From Filosporella fistucella (Eukaryota; Ascomycota; Leotiomycetes; Helotiales): a DNA stretch of 64,000 nt. The stretch's first letter is position 1. Each line of letters opens with the position of its first letter. The translations under genes and the position numbers were made by a program. The notes beneath the pieces are model-generated. The model was not told the DNA's origin. It worked only from the letters and a program-made list of their open reading frames with translations, and did not search any database. The stretch is from assembly GCA_030077755.1 (NCBI GenBank), contig JAQJZZ010000001.1, positions 1,736,001-1,800,000 on the forward strand, written 5' to 3'. Below, in pieces: positions 1 to 8,301 of this stretch.

Positions 1-783
1 ATCTTGTCTTCTTTGTTTCCGTATACGATTTTGACCTCCATGAATTGGGCGGCCCAAACTTGCTCTCCGTTAAAGCCGCTACTGGTATTTGCCTGGCTAC
101 TGTTATTGATGCTGGCTTTGGCCCCACCTTTGGCGACGTTGGGAACCCCTGAAGCAATAGCTCCAGCATCTACAGCGCCCTCGACTGAACCACCTGAAGA
201 CCGAGCAACACCAATCTGTACATCACCATCCGTGACGAATTGTATTCCAGTGACCATCCAAATTTTTGGGGTGTTGAATTTATGTTTTCCTAACTTTCCT
301 TTATATGAGATACTCGCTTGAGTTCGGATCCAGTCTCGCACTCCTTCCTGGGTCATGACTTCTTCCCTCATGAATGTCTCTGGTTTCTTGATCTTAAGTC
401 TGCGACCAGACTTGCCTTCAAGAGTTGCAGTCACGGTTGCGTCTCGATGGCCTTCAGCTGTGAAAAGGTCGGAAAATTTTAAGGCTAGCGATGAGTCTCT
501 GGAAACTGCGAAGGAAAGAGAAAATCCTCTGGCATCAGTCTGCTCTCGCCTTGTCCATTCTTGTATGTGCTGCTCGTATTTGGTCTGATTGAGACTGATT
601 GCCATTAGTATATGCACATTATTTAATGCTGTTCACAACTCACCTCTCCCGATACTCGAAGCGTTTAGATTCAAGCCCATCGTCCGGATCTAGGGGATTG
701 AGAAATAAACTTCCGAGACGTAAGTCTTCAGGATTGATTCCATGAGTGTAAGGGAGGAAACTGCGTTTCTGTTGTGGCGCCAT
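1..783 (-). CDS. gasdermin-like pore-forming protein, partial (3' end outside window)
   Basis: Two exons on the minus strand, 783-644 and 594 down to the window edge, joined by a 49-base intron with GTGAGT donor, a TACTAAT branch site and a CAG acceptor. The first of two nearby AGs is the one that keeps frame. At least 244 residues are visible with no stop before the edge. There is no signal peptide or membrane helix. The N-terminus carries an NPLDPDDGL segment, and the rest alternates polar and hydrophobic residues as a beta-rich protein would, with an IWMVTGIQFVTDG strand pair and a Gly/Ala/Ser-rich stretch after it. Size, layout and tight divergent pairing with a CHAT protease match fungal gasdermin-like proteins (the HET-Q1/RCD-1 group), whose cleaved form makes pores in the plasma membrane and kills the cell. 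The C-terminal inhibitory segment and cleavage site lie outside the window. Family assignment comes from pattern memory and context, not a profile search. Confidence 0.6.
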
Positions 784-1951
784 AATTGTAGGAATTGATA
801 GTACGATTTTTTTCTTTGAAACTCGGTGAGAGGTGAGAGAACTCCTGTCGACGATAATAAATAATACTGGAATGTTTCGACGAGTATGCCTCGAAGTGAA
901 AAACAATCGATGCTCCAGGCTGCTCTTGGGGGCAGTGCGTCGCAATCCTGTCACAAACTCAGCCCTCGCCACCACCACATCTCGGTGAGCAACTCGAGCG
1001 CCACCTTGAACATTTTATGACCTGAAATGTATCTTTGCGCCAGCAGAATTGGCTCCAGCGCACACAGAGAAGAAAACCTGATATCGGAGTCGGTGTAAAT
1101 CAATATAGTAGTAACATTTGACTCCAAGTATTAGGAGGAGCTCTGGGTCAAATTACGGCTTGAAGGCGTCCGAGGGGAGCGCGACTTGACCCTAGTGGCA
1201 CAGCCTCCAAGCTTGCCTAACGAACTTTCCAGCTTCTGTAAATATGACGTTCAAGCCTATGATATACTAAGATCACGAAAACAACTATTACGAGCAAGAG
1301 AATAATTACCTTCATTTTTTTTTTAACTTACCTGCCTCTGGATCACCAATTATCCAGGGCTACGTCAACGCTATTGACAACGCCCGCGACAGGGCTTTAG
1401 CCTGCAATTGTGACTCTGCAGTTCAACAACGCCTCAGCGCTTGAGGTCAGCTGCGAGAGGAATTCTCCTTCAGCATTCAATTGGATCAAATAAGGGAGCA
1501 ATGAAGGAGGCTCGCCGACTTGCTCGTCTGCGGCTCTATCACAATTTGACCACAAATTTCACTGCCACCTCCTGCTGCCGCAATGCAAATGGCGCCGAAG
1601 TCTGCAGAATGACCACAAGTCACACAGGAGGTAAAAGGGTGAGTGTTACCTGTTCATCATTATCTTTCGCCGCAATTAAACCAGCGCTTTGCAACTCTGA
1701 ACGAGATTTCCGGCGGGTTTGAAAACAGAAGTATCTGATCTCATATGACAACGTCTCTAGGACTACGAAAGCTAGAGCGAAAAGCACAACCACAATTTCA
1801 GCATAGGCTCCAAACTACCAGGGTAGAACAAAGTTCAAGTCGCACCTCACGACCCCGTCAAGTATATTGGTGAGATTTTATCTACGAAACCCAGTGCCCC
1901 CTCGCCTGTATATCACTCAGCAAAGTCCTAAAAGCTCTATCTCGCAATTCG
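784..1951. promoter_or_regulatory. shared divergent promoter region
   Basis: About 1.17 kb separates the start codons of the gasdermin-like gene and the CHAT protease gene, which point away from each other, so both promoters must lie here. A run of T lies near 1314-1325. The only open frame of any length (1441-1722) begins with TTG, has no recognisable content and is not called as a gene. Confidence 0.5.
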
Positions 1952-4744
1952 ATGTCAAAGTCCCTCAAAACTTCTAGTGATGTTGTCGACGCTTTGTGGG
2001 GAAAACCCAGTACTACAGATGGGGGCGAGGATGGCCGTACAACATACAGGACATACACAACAGAACAAGGAATTCAGAGCAAAAAAGCCCCCTTAGACAC
2101 CGGCTCATCAATTACTGGCACCCCCAGGAGCTACCAATCCTCCAAGTCTGGAAGTAATGAGAAGAAGCCAGCAACGCTACTCGCCTCGGAGATTGTCAGA
2201 ACGGCTCGCCGAAAAGCTCATGATGCGGAAAGTGCAGGTGATATTGAGGGTGGAATAGGCGCTTTGGAAGAAGCCTTACAAATTATCATGCAGCAATGGG
2301 ATTATCCCTCCGATTCTTTGAGGATGAGTGAAGCCGAAATATTTCTAGAGTTAGGAATGAAAGATGCCGCACGACACACATTGTCTCATTGCAAAATCAG
2401 TCCTAACACCAGGACGCTATCTACACCTCAACAAAACCCTTCCTCACAGAGACGGGGTTCCATCACCGACTCAATATTCTCCAAGCAGATGGCTGAGTTC
2501 AATCAACAACAAACTCAAGATCAAGAAAAGCTTCTACAGGCGTTACTTCAGGCAGAAGATTGGAAAAAAGCGAGGGAGGCTGCTGCTGAACTACATTGCA
2601 TCGACCGAACGGCTTTTGATATCGAAAAGCCGATGGACAGGTTCCAGAAGTGTCGGCAGTTGCTCGCCATTGGTCTTCTGGAAGAGACTAGTGATCTCGT
2701 AGCAGACAATGATAAGACACGCCTAGGTTTGGGAAAAGCGCTTCGAAACTACAACCACGGTTGTTATGCAACCGAACTGTTCCACAAATATTTGGATCCC
2801 CCGGAAGGGCAAGTCATCAATGGCTTCGACCATAGAGACTGCACCAATCTTTTCTTCTCAGCTGCTCGGATATGTGTTCTGTTCCATCAGAAAGGGATTT
2901 TTGACAGGGATGGCACATATCTCACACCCATCAGATTCACAAGAAAATTTCGAAAAGATGACTTGCCATGTAGTCCTGCTCTTACTGAAAGCAGCTGGGA
3001 TCTCCAAGCCCTACATTTCATGGAACAGGGGAGATCTCGAGCTCTTCGCGAATTAATCTTGAAGCAAAAGGCAGACGAGTCAAACCAACAAATCGTTACG
3101 GTGATGCAAAGGCGCTATCTTATGAAGCACGCAGTGTCGGCTGCCACACAGAGCAACAGAATCAAAAAGAGTCGAGACACCTATCGAGGAGAATCGGACG
3201 CCAAAAGTACTTCAATCCCCTCTCAACACCAAAACGACGCGCTTCTTGGACTTACTAATATAACGCCCCCTTCACCCTCTAATATTATACCTATCAGTGA
3301 TATCAACACAAGGAAAGACGCCCGACCGTTAGCGATTCGAGCCCTTCTTGATACGCCTGGATTGGATGACTACAAGACGCCAAATGCCACCATACCATCC
3401 CCATCATCGTATGATGGGTCAGACATGACCTCAGAGCATCCAAGACTGGGCAAAGAAGATGCCCAGCTACGTTGGCAAAAAGCAATCCTATATGCATTGG
3501 CCGTCAGTAACCCAACTCTCAACGCTGCAATTCCGAAGTCAAGCTTCCTCAATCAATTAAGTAGCATCGGAGCAAAGATTCCAAAAGACACAGCGATAAT
3601 TGAATATGCACTTGTCCAAACATCGCTTGAGGGTCTCATATCCGTCGTCATCACGCCAGATGGTATTCAAGAGTGCATTTGGCAGAAGACTGACAAGCTG
3701 AAACGGAGAGTATTGGAACTTCTGGAATGTATGCAATCTTATAGCACTAGCTCGAGAGATGCAAGCCCGACCTCTCCTCGTCGTGACATCATTCAAAATG
3801 CATTAGAACTATGCGCAACCTTACGGAACATTCTCATCAAGCCACTCGAACGGCACATACATGCAAAACAAAAACTTATCATTATTCCGTCCGGAGAGCT
3901 CGTTCACGTCCCATGGTCAATAATGCTCTCCAAACCCGTTTCTATAGTTCCAAGCCTCTCAATCTGGGACCATCTGGTGACACACACCCAGACTTCAAGA
4001 TCAAGCTCAACGCCGCTGAGAGTCTCTGTCGTCGGCAACCCGCCTCGTACGTCTGATGGAAGTCTCGTCGCTTCTGATATTCCCTATGCGCATTTTGAAG
4101 CGTTTTATATTGCTCGAATGCACCGTTCATTCCCTCTACTGACAAAGGCTCACGGCAAAGATTCATTTCGCCCGATGCTTCCTGGCTCCCACATTCTTCA
4201 TCTTTGCGCACACTCAACATTTAACGCTTCTCATCCCTCGCTATCCAGCATCCATTTCTTTGGCAACGCACTTACAGTGGCTGATTGGCGAAAGTTGGAG
4301 ATCAAGGCAGATTTGGTCATTTTCAGTTCATGTTTGTCGGCTGTCTCAAAAGCATTTCACAGCGGGAGTGCATTTGGTTTCGCTCATACTTTGCTCTCAA
4401 CGGGGACGAGAGCATTCATCGGAAGTCTTTGGCCAGTGGACGATCTCGCCACCCTCCTTTTGATGATGATGTTTTATGAAGAGTTGGTAAAATGTTCGCC
4501 TGCTGAAGCACTCCATCGAGCTCAGATGCGCATGAAAAATATAGATCTGGAGGATATCATGGATTTGGTTGAGAAGATTAAAGAGGTTGTGGAGAAAGAA
4601 GAAAAGATTAGAGAGTATGTCGATAATCACCGATACTGGATCAGAAAGCTCGACAACCTTGGGGAGGAGGATTTGAAGGTTCTCAGGGAAGAGAGGTGCT
4701 GGGCAGCCTTTGGAATCACGGGATATGGTTTCCAGGAGATCTGA
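1952..4744 (+). CDS. CHAT-domain (caspase-like) protease with helical repeat region
   Basis: Intronless, 930 residues, ATG start. Residues 1-65 are polar and probably disordered. Residues about 70-330 are helical and TPR/SEL1-like in amphipathic pattern. The C-terminal 350 residues form a CHAT (caspase HetF associated with TPRs) cysteine-protease domain. The His motif is HLCAHS with likely catalytic H754, in place of the usual HLACHG. The Cys motif is FSSCLSA with C794, followed by the typical GFAHTLLSTGTRAFIGSLWPVDD stretch near 807-829 that identifies CHAT. It should cleave a protein partner in the cytosol. The obvious partner is the divergent gasdermin-like product, since fungal gasdermin genes are known to cluster with S8 or CHAT protease genes. 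No NACHT or NB-ARC switch is seen, so the sensing part would be the helical region. The domain call is strong; the partner is inferred. Confidence 0.85.
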   Translation: MSKSLKTSSDVVDALWGKPSTTDGGEDGRTTYRTYTTEQGIQSKKAPLDTGSSITGTPRSYQSSKSGSNEKKPATLLASEIVRTARRKAHDAESAGDIEGGIGALEEALQIIMQQWDYPSDSLRMSEAEIFLELGMKDAARHTLSHCKISPNTRTLSTPQQNPSSQRRGSITDSIFSKQMAEFNQQQTQDQEKLLQALLQAEDWKKAREAAAELHCIDRTAFDIEKPMDRFQKCRQLLAIGLLEETSDLVADNDKTRLGLGKALRNYNHGCYATELFHKYLDPPEGQVINGFDHRDCTNLFFSAARICVLFHQKGIFDRDGTYLTPIRFTRKFRKDDLPCSPALTESSWDLQALHFMEQGRSRALRELILKQKADESNQQIVTVMQRRYLMKHAVSAATQSNRIKKSRDTYRGESDAKSTSIPSQHQNDALLGLTNITPPSPSNIIPISDINTRKDARPLAIRALLDTPGLDDYKTPNATIPSPSSYDGSDMTSEHPRLGKEDAQLRWQKAILYALAVSNPTLNAAIPKSSFLNQLSSIGAKIPKDTAIIEYALVQTSLEGLISVVITPDGIQECIWQKTDKLKRRVLELLECMQSYSTSSRDASPTSPRRDIIQNALELCATLRNILIKPLERHIHAKQKLIIIPSGELVHVPWSIMLSKPVSIVPSLSIWDHLVTHTQTSRSSSTPLRVSVVGNPPRTSDGSLVASDIPYAHFEAFYIARMHRSFPLLTKAHGKDSFRPMLPGSHILHLCAHSTFNASHPSLSSIHFFGNALTVADWRKLEIKADLVIFSSCLSAVSKAFHSGSAFGFAHTLLSTGTRAFIGSLWPVDDLATLLLMMMFYEELVKCSPAEALHRAQMRMKNIDLEDIMDLVEKIKEVVEKEEKIREYVDNHRYWIRKLDNLGEEDLKVLREERCWAAFGITGYGFQEI

Positions 4745-5729
4745 AGAGAGCAGAGAGAGGAAGAAGGGCCGCATAAAGCGCCATCACTCATCTATATAAA
4801 CTCCAATGAAGTTATATTTTTATTCAAAATATACATCATGTCGCGAATATCCTGTCTCTTTTCCACACATCTTACAGCTCCGAAAAAGTTTACACATGAG
4901 AGCGTCCAAAGCCACCTAGAACACATGAGGCGCGTGGGGTATTACAACATTTGTCGTCAAAGAAGTAAGAAGATAGAATTTGAAGACTAAACGCCACTTA
5001 CAAGGTATTTTGCTCACTGCCCCTCAAACCTCAACGAAGCCAAGGAAAGGGGAACGAGTGGGATTTTTCCACGCTTAATCAACAACCGATATTCGGTATC
5101 TATGGCGTGATAAAAGCTAATAAATGCCAACACGGCATTTCATAAATCTCTAGGTCCAATATAGAAATGATCAACGCACTTTAAGCTCAAAAACCATTTT
5201 GATATCTGATAGAATAACAAAATCGTCAAATCATTTACGAGCGCAAAACCACAAAAGTACTCTTACCCCCGCTCAGATCGAAATATCCCAGCCCAGCAGT
5301 TACACCCCAGTATCTGGTCCAAACAAAAAGCTTGCTTCAACTTATCACGAATCAAACTTGCTCATAGAATATATATACAACACATCTAGATCATCCGGAT
5401 GCTAGCTTTCCTGTATCTTGGGTCATTTTGTGTCACGGTTTTCAGCGCTAGCATGTGGTTACGTGCTTTTGGCTTTTACATCGACAGAACAGAGAGATGG
5501 CAATGGATAACCCAAAGCTTGGATTTCGCTGCATCTCCATTCCCGACGATCGGTATATTTGGGAATCCTGGCATAGAGCACGAGATGCATGGCCCAGGGT
5601 ACGGCGGCAAGCGCAAAGCAATCTTTGATGGGTATATGTATATCTGTGGGAATCCCCATTAAACTGGTGTCCCAGCACTGATTTTACTACTACGGCATTT
5701 TAAAATCTTGTATTGACGATATCTGAATC
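4745..5729. other. intergenic, promoter side of Dur3-like gene
   Basis: No convincing gene. Open frames at 5199-5405 and 5399-5662 are short, start with non-ATG codons or lack recognisable content, and overlap antisense frames. Two GATA-factor type hexamers lie here, TGATAA at 5108-5113 and TGATAG at 5207-5212. This would fit nitrogen control (AreA/NIT2 type) of the urea transporter, but such short motifs occur often by chance. Confidence 0.35.
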
Positions 5730-8301
5730 ATGGCGGACACAGTTGCTGCTATACCCCTCTCTCAGGTTGGTTATACCATATTTCTCTTCAATTATTCCTT
5801 GAACAAGATTGCTAATCTAAATGTGAATTAGGGGGCAGGATATGGAGTCGTTATTGGTCTCGGAGCACTTTTCGCTCTGGGAATGATTTTGGTGACTGAG
5901 ATTATGAAAAGAAGAGGAAATGTTGAAAACTCTGAAGAGTTCACAGGTATGAAGCATCTTCGTCTCTTTCAATAATCGAGCAATGAGTATTTTGCTGACT
6001 ACAATTTTCCTATCATAGTCGCCAAACGATCTCTCGGAACTGGCCTCACTGCAGCCGGTGTGACATCTTCCTGGACGTGGAGCACGACTCTTCTGTCTTC
6101 ATGTACCGTTGCATATCAATACGGTGTAGCGGGGTCATTCTTCTATGCTGCTTGCAATAGCACTCAGATAATGGTATTCAGTAATCTGGCAATTGTAAGT
6201 CGGGGTCATTTTTGCACAATAAAGTCTCATCAATTAATCTCTAATCACAGCAATGCAAACGAAAAGCACCCAATGCACGAACCTTTCTCGAAATAATTCG
6301 AGTCAGATACGGAACAGTCGCCCATTTCTCATTCATGTTTTTCAGTCTCGCTTCAAACATCCTAGTTGTCTCTTCTATCTTGATTGGTGGTGCAGCTGCT
6401 ATTAATTCCTTGACAGGCATGAGTGTTTATGCTAGTCTGTGGTTGCTTCCTCTAAGTGTCGCTGCATACACAATGCGGGGTGGACTTAGAGCTACTATTT
6501 TGACAGACTATGTGATTTTCCTCCCTGCGGTTGTCTAAACTTAGCTTATATGAGTAGATCCATACTGCCATCATTCTAGTCGTCATTCTGGTCTTTTGGT
6601 TCAAAGTCTATGCCACAGGTTCTCAAATCGGCTCACCAGGAAGGATGTGGGATCTCCTGATCTTAGCCGCGCAGCGAAACAACTACTCCGCCCCCACCAA
6701 AGATGGCAGCTATCTCACCATCCGCTCTCTTGGGGCCCTCAAGTTTGCCATTCTCAGCATTCTCGAGTATACCGGTGTCGTCTTCCTAGACAACTCGTTC
6801 CATCAGAAAGGTATCGCTGCTGATCCTGCTTCTGCCGTTCCAGGATATGTTCTAGGAGGTTTGGCATGGTATGCTATGCCATTTACTTTAGCTACTACGA
6901 TGGGGATATTAGCTGTTGCGTTGGAGAATACTCCTGCGTTCCCGACGTATCCGAGGAGAATGAATACGCAAGAGATTGGGGCTGGATTGGCTTTGCCGTA
7001 TGCTGCTCAGACTATTGATGGTAAAGGGGGTGCTGGAGCTGGTAAGTAGCTCTTCTCTGGATATAAGTATACCGAGAAACCTGACTTTAATTGTGTAGTT
7101 CTCGTTCTCATGTTCATGAGTTGTACCAGTGCAATTTCGAGTGTACTCATTGGTACATCGACTGTCCTCTCATATGACGTCTATAAAACTTGTAAGTAAC
7201 TTCCAGAATTTGAGAGTGCTCCATTGACAAGTGGCGACAGATATCAACACCAAAGCCACCGATGCTCAGGTTCTTCGGGCAGGACATTGGTGCGTTGCTG
7301 GCTTTGCTATCTTTATGGCTGCATTTGGATCCATGCTTCACGGTATTAATATTGATTTGGGGTTCATTTATGTTAGTCTCACATTGGCTATATTTCTAGG
7401 TCCAAGCTGACTATCGCTCTAGAACATGACGGGAATTTTTACTGGATCTGCATTGCCAGCATTAATCGCGACTTTCTTCTCATCCCGACAGGGACCTCTT
7501 GCAGCCACAGCCTCCATCTGGATAGGCTTCTTCGCAGCTGTGATTACCTGGGTTAGTTAACAAAATTCAAAAAGTCACCATTAACACCGAGTATTTACTA
7601 AACTAAATATGTATAGCTGACACTTGCTCATCGTTTCTCTGGAACCGTAACAATCGCTTCCGTCGGTCAAATCGATCCATGCTTATATGGCTGCATCGCA
7701 GGTATCGGTGCCGCAGCAGTTGTAACAATTAGTATCTCAATCTTTCAGAATGAGAAATATAGCTGGGAGACTCTTCGCGACATCAAACTTCTCGACGACG
7801 AAGGAAATGATAGAGATGTCGCATTTGCAGACCCAACATACGACCCTGAGCGACTTCGAAAAGCAGCTTATATTGCTCGAGGAATCACTGTCTTCCTGTT
7901 CTTAGCTTTGTTCATTATATGGCCTTTGACGTAAGTCCCTCCCACTTTCTTTTGCTTGTATGCAGATTTGGTGCATCAAGAAGCTGACAGGTTTTTCTAG
8001 TTTATATGGCACCGCATACAAATTTTCCAAGAAGTTTTTCACAGGTTGGGTCATCGTATCTCTCCTCTGGGCGTTCTTCTCTTTCTTCAGTGTCACTATC
8101 TACCCTATTATCGAGGGGCGACACTTGCTCCTTTCATGGGCTAAAGACTTGTTTGGTAAGGGAGGTAAAGGACAGCATAGAGATGAATTTGATCACCATC
8201 AGGGGAGACAACGTTATGACGAATCGGAAGAGTCGGCTGCAGGAAGGGAGGAGAAGGATGGTAGTAAGGATTCTGCTTCGCCTGTTAAAGCGAATGGGTA
8301 G
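5730..8301 (+). CDS. urea/H+ (polyamine) symporter, Dur3-like, SSS family
   Basis: Ten exons (5730-5765, 5832-5946, 6019-6194, 6251-6511, 6558-7041, 7099-7191, 7241-7371, 7423-7551, 7617-7930, 8001-8301) give 679 residues and close in frame. The short first exon ends in PLSQ and is followed by [11 protein letters not shown], the usual start of fungal Dur3 proteins. Multiple hydrophobic segments follow in the sodium:solute-symporter pattern, including [12 protein letters not shown] and the [14 protein letters not shown] segment typical of the family. The tail after about residue 630 is hydrophilic and charged (Gly, Lys, Glu, His), as in other fungal members. It should import urea, and perhaps polyamines, at the plasma membrane. 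The many small exons and regular donor sites suggest an intact gene. Upstream GATA motifs hint at nitrogen repression. The neighbour downstream is another nutrient permease. Confidence 0.9.

What the first reader, a model, noticed from the sequence alone, without database searches (positions are those of the whole stretch)
1..4744. Divergent gasdermin-like / CHAT-protease pair: a probable fungal regulated cell-death module
The minus-strand gene (start 783) encodes a beta-rich cytosolic protein of at least 244 residues laid out like fungal gasdermins. The plus-strand neighbour encodes a protease with a clear CHAT domain (candidate dyad H754/C794) and a helical repeat region. Known fungal gasdermin-like proteins (HET-Q1, RCD-1 group) are cut by partner proteases encoded next door, usually S8 or CHAT. 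Divergent arrangement with a shared 1.17 kb promoter fits a co-regulated pair. The caspase-type fold paired with a gasdermin parallels the animal caspase/gasdermin system. No NLR switch domain is visible in the protease, so how it is triggered would be new.
Basis: partly seen in the sequence, partly recalled or inferred. Interest (0 to 1): 0.9.

Follow-up and report, generated by a model that had tools for sequence, protein, structure and literature searches.

The report
Fungal gasdermin paired with caspase-like protease
This fungus carries, back to back, a gene for a probable membrane-piercing cell-suicide protein (a gasdermin) and a gene for the caspase-like protease that probably switches it on; such pairs are already known in fungi, and this genome holds several more built to the same plan.

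Summary

In the same genome 8 of 10 CHAT loci have a gasdermin-like gene head-to-head (one weakly supported). Across these eight, gasdermin and CHAT distances correlate (r 0.75; 125 of 40,320 permutations reach it), as if pairs diverged as units.

Fungal gasdermin/CHAT two-gene clusters, including a TPR-CHAT protease shown to activate its gasdermin in Podospora, are already published (seen in reviews; the primary paper is not held). So this is a well-supported new member of a known kind, with an unannotated gasdermin subfamily and a conserved tail. 'No NLR' is not new as a class. Cleavage, pore formation and trigger are inferred.

The parts
644..783 (-). Gasdermin-like gene, exon 1 (residues 1-46 and part of 47; relatives share the motif FLPYxxGxxPxxLRxGSLYxNP)
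   Evidence: translation, splice site; relatives; family profile on this exon's frame, E 2.1e-20
595..643 (-). 49-nt intron
   Evidence: of 11 acceptor choices listed, three keep the frame open; this one matches the relatives' junction, the other two drop residues that the relatives keep
1..594 (-). Gasdermin-like gene, exon 2, in-window part (pore-forming domain incl. IWMVTG...VWAAQF); continues 292 bases left of the window, stop included (to G000:C1:1735709), and there encodes the tail
   Evidence: fold (on the relative P0001)
784..1951 (.). Shared 1168-bp divergent intergenic region (probable common promoter region)
   Evidence: the promoter role is inference
1952..4744 (+). Helical-scaffold/CHAT protease gene, 930 aa, no intron needed
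2165..3577 (+). N-terminal helical scaffold (model helices about residues 72-542), the probable sensing/regulatory part; residues 1-73 and 415-494 have pLDDT under 50
   Evidence: secondary structure, pLDDT; several Craspase TPR-CHAT rows aligned from about residue 72 to 928, rmsd 10-12; others from about 215
3806..4717 (+). CHAT protease domain (Pfam PF12770); H754 at 4211-4213, C794 at 4331-4333

Best explanation
A two-gene pyroptosis-like module. The minus-strand gene makes a cytosolic gasdermin held inactive by its C-terminal tail (about 66 residues beyond the matched fold here, about 80 in the relative P0001: a variable acidic linker and a conserved end segment). The plus-strand gene makes a TPR-CHAT-type caspase-clan protease whose helical N-terminal scaffold senses an unknown cue. 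When triggered, the CHAT domain (H754/C794) cuts the gasdermin tail; the freed N-terminal domain inserts two beta-hairpins into the plasma membrane, oligomerises into a pore and kills the compartment. SHOWN here: gasdermin fold of a 61%-identical relative and sequence relationship; CHAT domain and conserved dyad; head-to-head neighbourhood, repeated in the genome; neighbours in relatives; correlated divergence of partners. INFERRED: cleavage, site, pore, death, trigger.
Against: No functional data. Model confidence is moderate (mean pLDDT 66.6; 66.8) and the gasdermin model is of a relative. The window protein alone finds no gasdermin in the PDB, nor do two paralogues alone or the C16 family profile, all at E <= 1 or laxer. 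The paralogues in the mixed profiles were chosen because they lie beside CHAT genes and score with the family profile, some very weakly. One gasdermin of this genome (C3b) has no CHAT neighbour, and two CHAT loci have no detectable gasdermin. No cleavage site was identified.
Confidence: 0.83

Rival explanations
1. The gasdermin is real but is activated without cleavage (as RCD-1, by meeting a different allele), and the CHAT protease acts on another substrate or degrades the gasdermin.
For: RCD-1, the closest fold match, is not controlled by cleavage according to PMC12881547 (passages); a gasdermin-like gene without a CHAT neighbour exists in this genome (C3b).
Against: The protein has a partly conserved extra tail beyond the fold matched to RCD-1; 8 of 10 CHAT loci are head-to-head with a gasdermin-like gene and partners co-diverge.
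Confidence: 0.1
2. A special case of the best explanation: the module serves allorecognition (a het locus), so its alleles would be highly polymorphic within the species.
For: Fungal gasdermins HET-Q1 and RCD-1 are het determinants (PMC12881547 passages), and a CHAT gene is one idiomorph of Aspergillus fumigatus hetB (PMC11138114 passages).
Against: Partners recur in several fungi with identities that fall much alike in both over six species sets, which looks like ordinary descent; no population data are at hand.
Confidence: 0.25
3. The minus-strand product is another MACPF/CDC-type pore former rather than a gasdermin (UniRef names the Rhynchosporium relative with 'MACPF domain-containing').
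For: That name (P0009); perforin-like and CDC chains appear lower in the fold searches.
Confidence: 0.03
4. Chance neighbours.
For: None found.
Against: Same neighbours in three other fungi by consecutive tags; 8 pairs in one genome, 8 of 8 divergent; five single-protein searches of the whole genome reached 8 gasdermin loci, queries included, 7 of them beside CHAT genes, though three of the five queries had themselves been picked beside CHAT genes.
Confidence: 0.02

Closest known systems
Fungal gasdermin + TPR-CHAT protease two-gene cluster of Podospora anserina (Clave et al. 2022; known here only from reviews PMC12881547 section 21 and PMC10197012 section 15)
   Same: Gasdermin gene clustered with a gene for a CHAT protease that bears TPR repeats
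HET-Q1 / HET-Q2 (P. anserina)
   Same: Gasdermin with a C-terminal tail, protease encoded at the locus
   Different: HET-Q2 is an S8 serine protease and the genes are idiomorphs (PMC12881547 passages); HET-Q1 has 278 aa and loses about 40 residues (PMC10989679 passages), whereas this one has 341 aa
RCD-1 (Neurospora crassa)
   Same: Closest solved fold and the only PDB molecule matched by the family profiles
   Different: RCD-1 is activated by allele mixing, not cleavage (review passages); the alignment to it ends at model residue about 269-275, before the tail
Csx29 / TPR-CHAT of Craspase, and separase
   Same: Helical scaffold plus C-terminal caspase-clan domain
   Different: Partners there are a CRISPR effector and Csx30, or cohesin; sequence identity 9-19%
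CHAT-NACHT proteases beside gasdermin-like genes (loci C10b, C4b of this genome)
   Same: Head-to-head gasdermin-like gene
   Different: CHAT lies N-terminal to a NACHT/AAA match below the Pfam cut-off; the window protein has none at E <= 1

Membership tests
Fungal gasdermin (fGSDM) | Gasdermin N-terminal pore-forming fold | tested here: met
   on a model of P0001, a 61%-identical relative (not the window protein itself)
Fungal gasdermin (fGSDM) | Sequence relationship to a characterised fungal gasdermin | tested here: met
   RCD-1-1 at 5.2e-6 only with genome paralogues added; family alone 0.081; single protein none
Fungal gasdermin (fGSDM) | Two long hairpin segments that can insert into membrane | tested here: inconclusive
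   Strands around residues 71-107 and 171-220 of the model; stretches 78-99 and 177-215 have pLDDT under 50
Fungal gasdermin (fGSDM) | Short C-terminal inhibitory tail | tested here: inconclusive
   A tail with a conserved end segment exists; inhibition not testable
Fungal gasdermin (fGSDM) | Clustered with a protease gene | tested here: met
   8 of 10 CHAT loci in the genome
Fungal gasdermin (fGSDM) | Forms pores and kills on activation | not testable with these tools
   Needs expression
CHAT protease (caspase clan) | CHAT domain above curated cut-off | tested here: met
   135.5 bits against cut-off 24
CHAT protease (caspase clan) | His/Cys catalytic dyad | tested here: met
   H754 and C794 in 33 of 33 aligned (window plus 32 of 44 hits)
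CHAT protease (caspase clan) | Cleaves the neighbouring gasdermin | not testable with these tools
   Needs expression
TPR-CHAT | TPR repeats N-terminal to CHAT | tested here: inconclusive
   Only TPR_14 at E 0.27 in Pfam, below cut-off; fold matches TPR-CHAT and separase scaffolds
NLR-type CHAT protease | NACHT/NB-ARC domain | tested here: not met
   No NACHT or NB-ARC match at E <= 1 in the window protein; NACHT below cut-off at C10b and C4b
HET-Q1/HET-Q2 system | Partner is an S8 serine protease | tested here: not met
   The neighbour is a CHAT protein
MACPF/CDC pore former | MACPF domain or fold as best match | tested here: inconclusive
   No Pfam match at E <= 1; MACPF/CDC chains rank below the leading gasdermin rows

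The most novel reading that the evidence does not exclude
This is a distinct branch of fungal gasdermin/CHAT modules whose partners have been locked together since before Leotiomycetes and Dothideomycetes split: a separase/Csx29-like protease without any NLR switch holds the sensing function itself, and a conserved segment at the end of the gasdermin tail is the dedicated dock and lock for that one protease, so that the eight pairs of this genome run side by side as insulated death circuits rather than as a het locus.
Probability: 0.2. Interest if true: 0.68.

Novelty: new member of a known kind. Interest (0 to 1): 0.45.

Why it matters
It shows that a protein family which the databases call only hypothetical or uncharacterized (once 'MACPF') belongs with the fungal gasdermins, and it gives one genome with eight head-to-head gasdermin/CHAT pairs of differing protease design whose partners diverge together. 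That makes a concrete open question testable: are protease-gasdermin circuits insulated from each other by co-evolved recognition?

Tried and rejected
Rejected: 'MACPF protein'; NLR protease; chance neighbours; S8 partner. My own idea that this pair is unusually conserved compared with other pairs was not borne out: a control gasdermin (C16) finds 25 relatives from 82% identity down, with Fusarium, Beauveria and Orbilia among the named ones, against 53 from 61% down for the window gene. The named hosts differ, but I claim no special conservation. The partner correlation within the four TPR-class pairs alone is not distinguishable from chance (r 0.48, 6 of 24 permutations): the signal lies between classes.

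Led nowhere: the window gasdermin alone against the PDB (three unrelated peptidase chains at E 0.47-0.64); the window CHAT protein alone (three unrelated chains at E 0.67 or worse); two paralogues alone; the C16 family profile; the CHAT family profile gives only a designed helical protein at 0.0099. No paper of the library holds gasdermin, CHAT and Helotiales together; a search for partner co-evolution (96 papers, 20 listed) showed, on this subject by title, only reviews, one of which I had already read in part. Protein P0098 beside CHAT locus C6b finds nothing in Pfam at 0.01 or the PDB at 1. Weak members: C4b's gasdermin scores 0.016 with the family profile and was not reached by the genome-wide searches; C9's scores only 0.84 with the family profile but 7.2e-20 against C16.

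Full report
What is there. The window is G000:C1:1736001-1800000 of a 45.8-Mb genome in 19 contigs. Its left edge cuts a minus-strand gene. With the flank (L002) the gene has exon 1 783..644, a 49-nt intron 643..595 and exon 2 running 292 bases past the window edge, stop included; the product has 341 residues. Relatives read through the splice junction without a gap, while P0005 carries extra residues just there, as if the intron had been read through. The divergent plus-strand gene 1952..4744 is one frame of 930 residues. The gap between the starts is 1168 bp.

By sequence the link is remote. The window protein alone finds no gasdermin in the PDB. The family profile alone gives RCD-1-1 as its only chain at E <= 10, at a non-significant 0.081. 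An alignment of 12 of the 53 relatives and 8 genome paralogues gives RCD-1-1 at 5.2e-6 and its maltose-binding-protein fusion at 1.5e-4, and nothing else at E <= 1. The family matches the family of a paralogue (C16, 26 sequences, collected by its own search) with 97.9% probability, 3.4e-13, and a profile of six paralogues finds the window gene at 1.6e-13 among 1965 frames of the window and 19 loci. Against this, the C16 family profile alone finds no PDB chain at E <= 1, and the paralogues were picked beside CHAT genes by scores that were in part very weak (0.0093 to 0.84 for four of the six).

Anatomy. The gasdermin fold ends near residue 269-275 of the model. Beyond it P0001 has about 80 residues and the window protein about 66: a low-confidence, variable, acidic stretch (about 286-316 in P0001) and a conserved end segment (consensus PYVxxLxxTDWxMYxECxxYL), modelled as two helices. 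HET-Q1, by comparison, has 278 residues and loses about 40 (PMC10989679 passages). That this tail is the lock and that its linker is cut is inference.

Neighbourhood in other fungi. Locus tags are consecutive, with equal contig lengths, in Cadophora (IFR05_011242/011241), Oculimacula (5583/5582) and Cudoniella (g9326/g9327); in Byssothecium the two have equal contig length and nearby tags (52932/52949). In Rhynchosporium and Venturia the two partners are listed from sister species. The remaining named relatives appear with one partner only; the CHAT search scored only the 7998 best candidates, so absence there means little. Identities between species fall much alike in both partners over six species sets, the two mixed genera included; the largest difference is Cadophora-Oculimacula, 0.75 for gasdermin and 0.88 for CHAT.

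The same genome. PF12770 finds 10 CHAT loci (a lower bound). Beside 8 of 10 lies a gasdermin-like gene, head-to-head in 8 of 8: C1 (window), C6a, C9, C4a, C16, C3a, C10b and C4b. C4b is the weakest (0.016, and not reached); C10b rests on 0.012 plus 1.8e-4, and C9 on 0.84 plus 7.2e-20. C6b faces a 292-aa protein without a Pfam match at 0.01, and C10a has no gasdermin-like frame in the 10 kb scanned. Five single-protein searches of the whole genome reached 8 gasdermin loci, queries included, 7 beside CHAT genes; three of the five queries had been picked beside CHAT genes, so the 7 are not independent, but the window gene as query led to C6a without that help. The eighth locus, C3b (0.015; 2.3e-13 with the family profile), has no CHAT match; other proteases around it were not searched for.

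Protease designs differ: C-terminal CHAT with a TPR match above cut-off (C3a, C4a) or below it (C9, C6a), with no other domain (C16) or none but a TPR match at E 0.27 and other matches at E 0.14 or worse (C1), and N-terminal CHAT with NACHT/AAA below cut-off (C10b, C4b). Distances among the eight gasdermins and among the eight CHAT domains correlate, r 0.745, reached by 125 of 40,320 permutations; every leave-one-out is reached by 46 of 5040 or fewer. Within the four TPR-class pairs C9, C4a, C16 and C3a alone it does not stand out (6 of 24). So pairs diverged as units at class level. Two CHAT pieces are short (C4b 116 and C10b 213 aa), and most distances are large.

How it probably works, and what is known. 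Reviews report that about 80% of fungal gasdermin genes cluster with protease genes, 17-19% with CHAT or cysteine proteases, that some CHAT proteins are NLR-like, and that a TPR-bearing CHAT protease activates its gasdermin in P. anserina (PMC12881547 section 21 and PMC10197012 section 15 read; PMC10989679 passages). A CHAT gene is one idiomorph of hetB in Aspergillus fumigatus (PMC11138114 passages). The primary paper (Clave et al. 2022) is not held, so whether this subfamily is in its list is unknown. The window pair fits this scheme in what I could test. It is a new member of a known kind.

Limits. Nothing here shows expression, cleavage, pores, death or polymorphism. I did not study the window beyond about 9 kb, save for the profile scans of its frames.

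Noticed in passing
L026:3018-3893 (-) and 4734-7820 (+) (G000:C6:644018-648820): A CHAT protease stands head-to-head with a 292-aa frame without a Pfam match at 0.01 or a PDB match at 1, which the gasdermin profiles do not detect: perhaps a different effector under CHAT control.
   Followed up: partly
L023:4010-4984 (+) (G000:C3:2197010-2197984): A relative of the window gasdermin with no CHAT match nearby, about 38 kb from the contig end.
   Followed up: partly
L031:5251-10000 (+) and L033:1299-5363 (-): Two CHAT proteins with a NACHT/AAA match below the Pfam cut-off C-terminal to CHAT, each beside a gasdermin-like gene.
   Followed up: partly
L030:1217-8073 (G000:C3:6217-13073): A gasdermin/CHAT pair within 14 kb of a contig end.
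   Followed up: no
L032:4209-4958 (-) (G000:C10:336209-336958): A 250-aa frame with only part of a CHAT domain (profile positions 144-259) and no gasdermin-like frame in the 10 kb scanned.
   Followed up: no
L002:2364-3401 (+), left of the window: An open frame of 345 aa left of the gasdermin looks kinase-like, below the Pfam cut-off (27.9 against 31.7 bits).
   Followed up: no
P0068 (Cudoniella relative of the CHAT protein): Database protein of 1108 aa that also carries PF01070 (an FMN-dependent dehydrogenase domain, name from recall), possibly a gene-model fusion.
   Followed up: no
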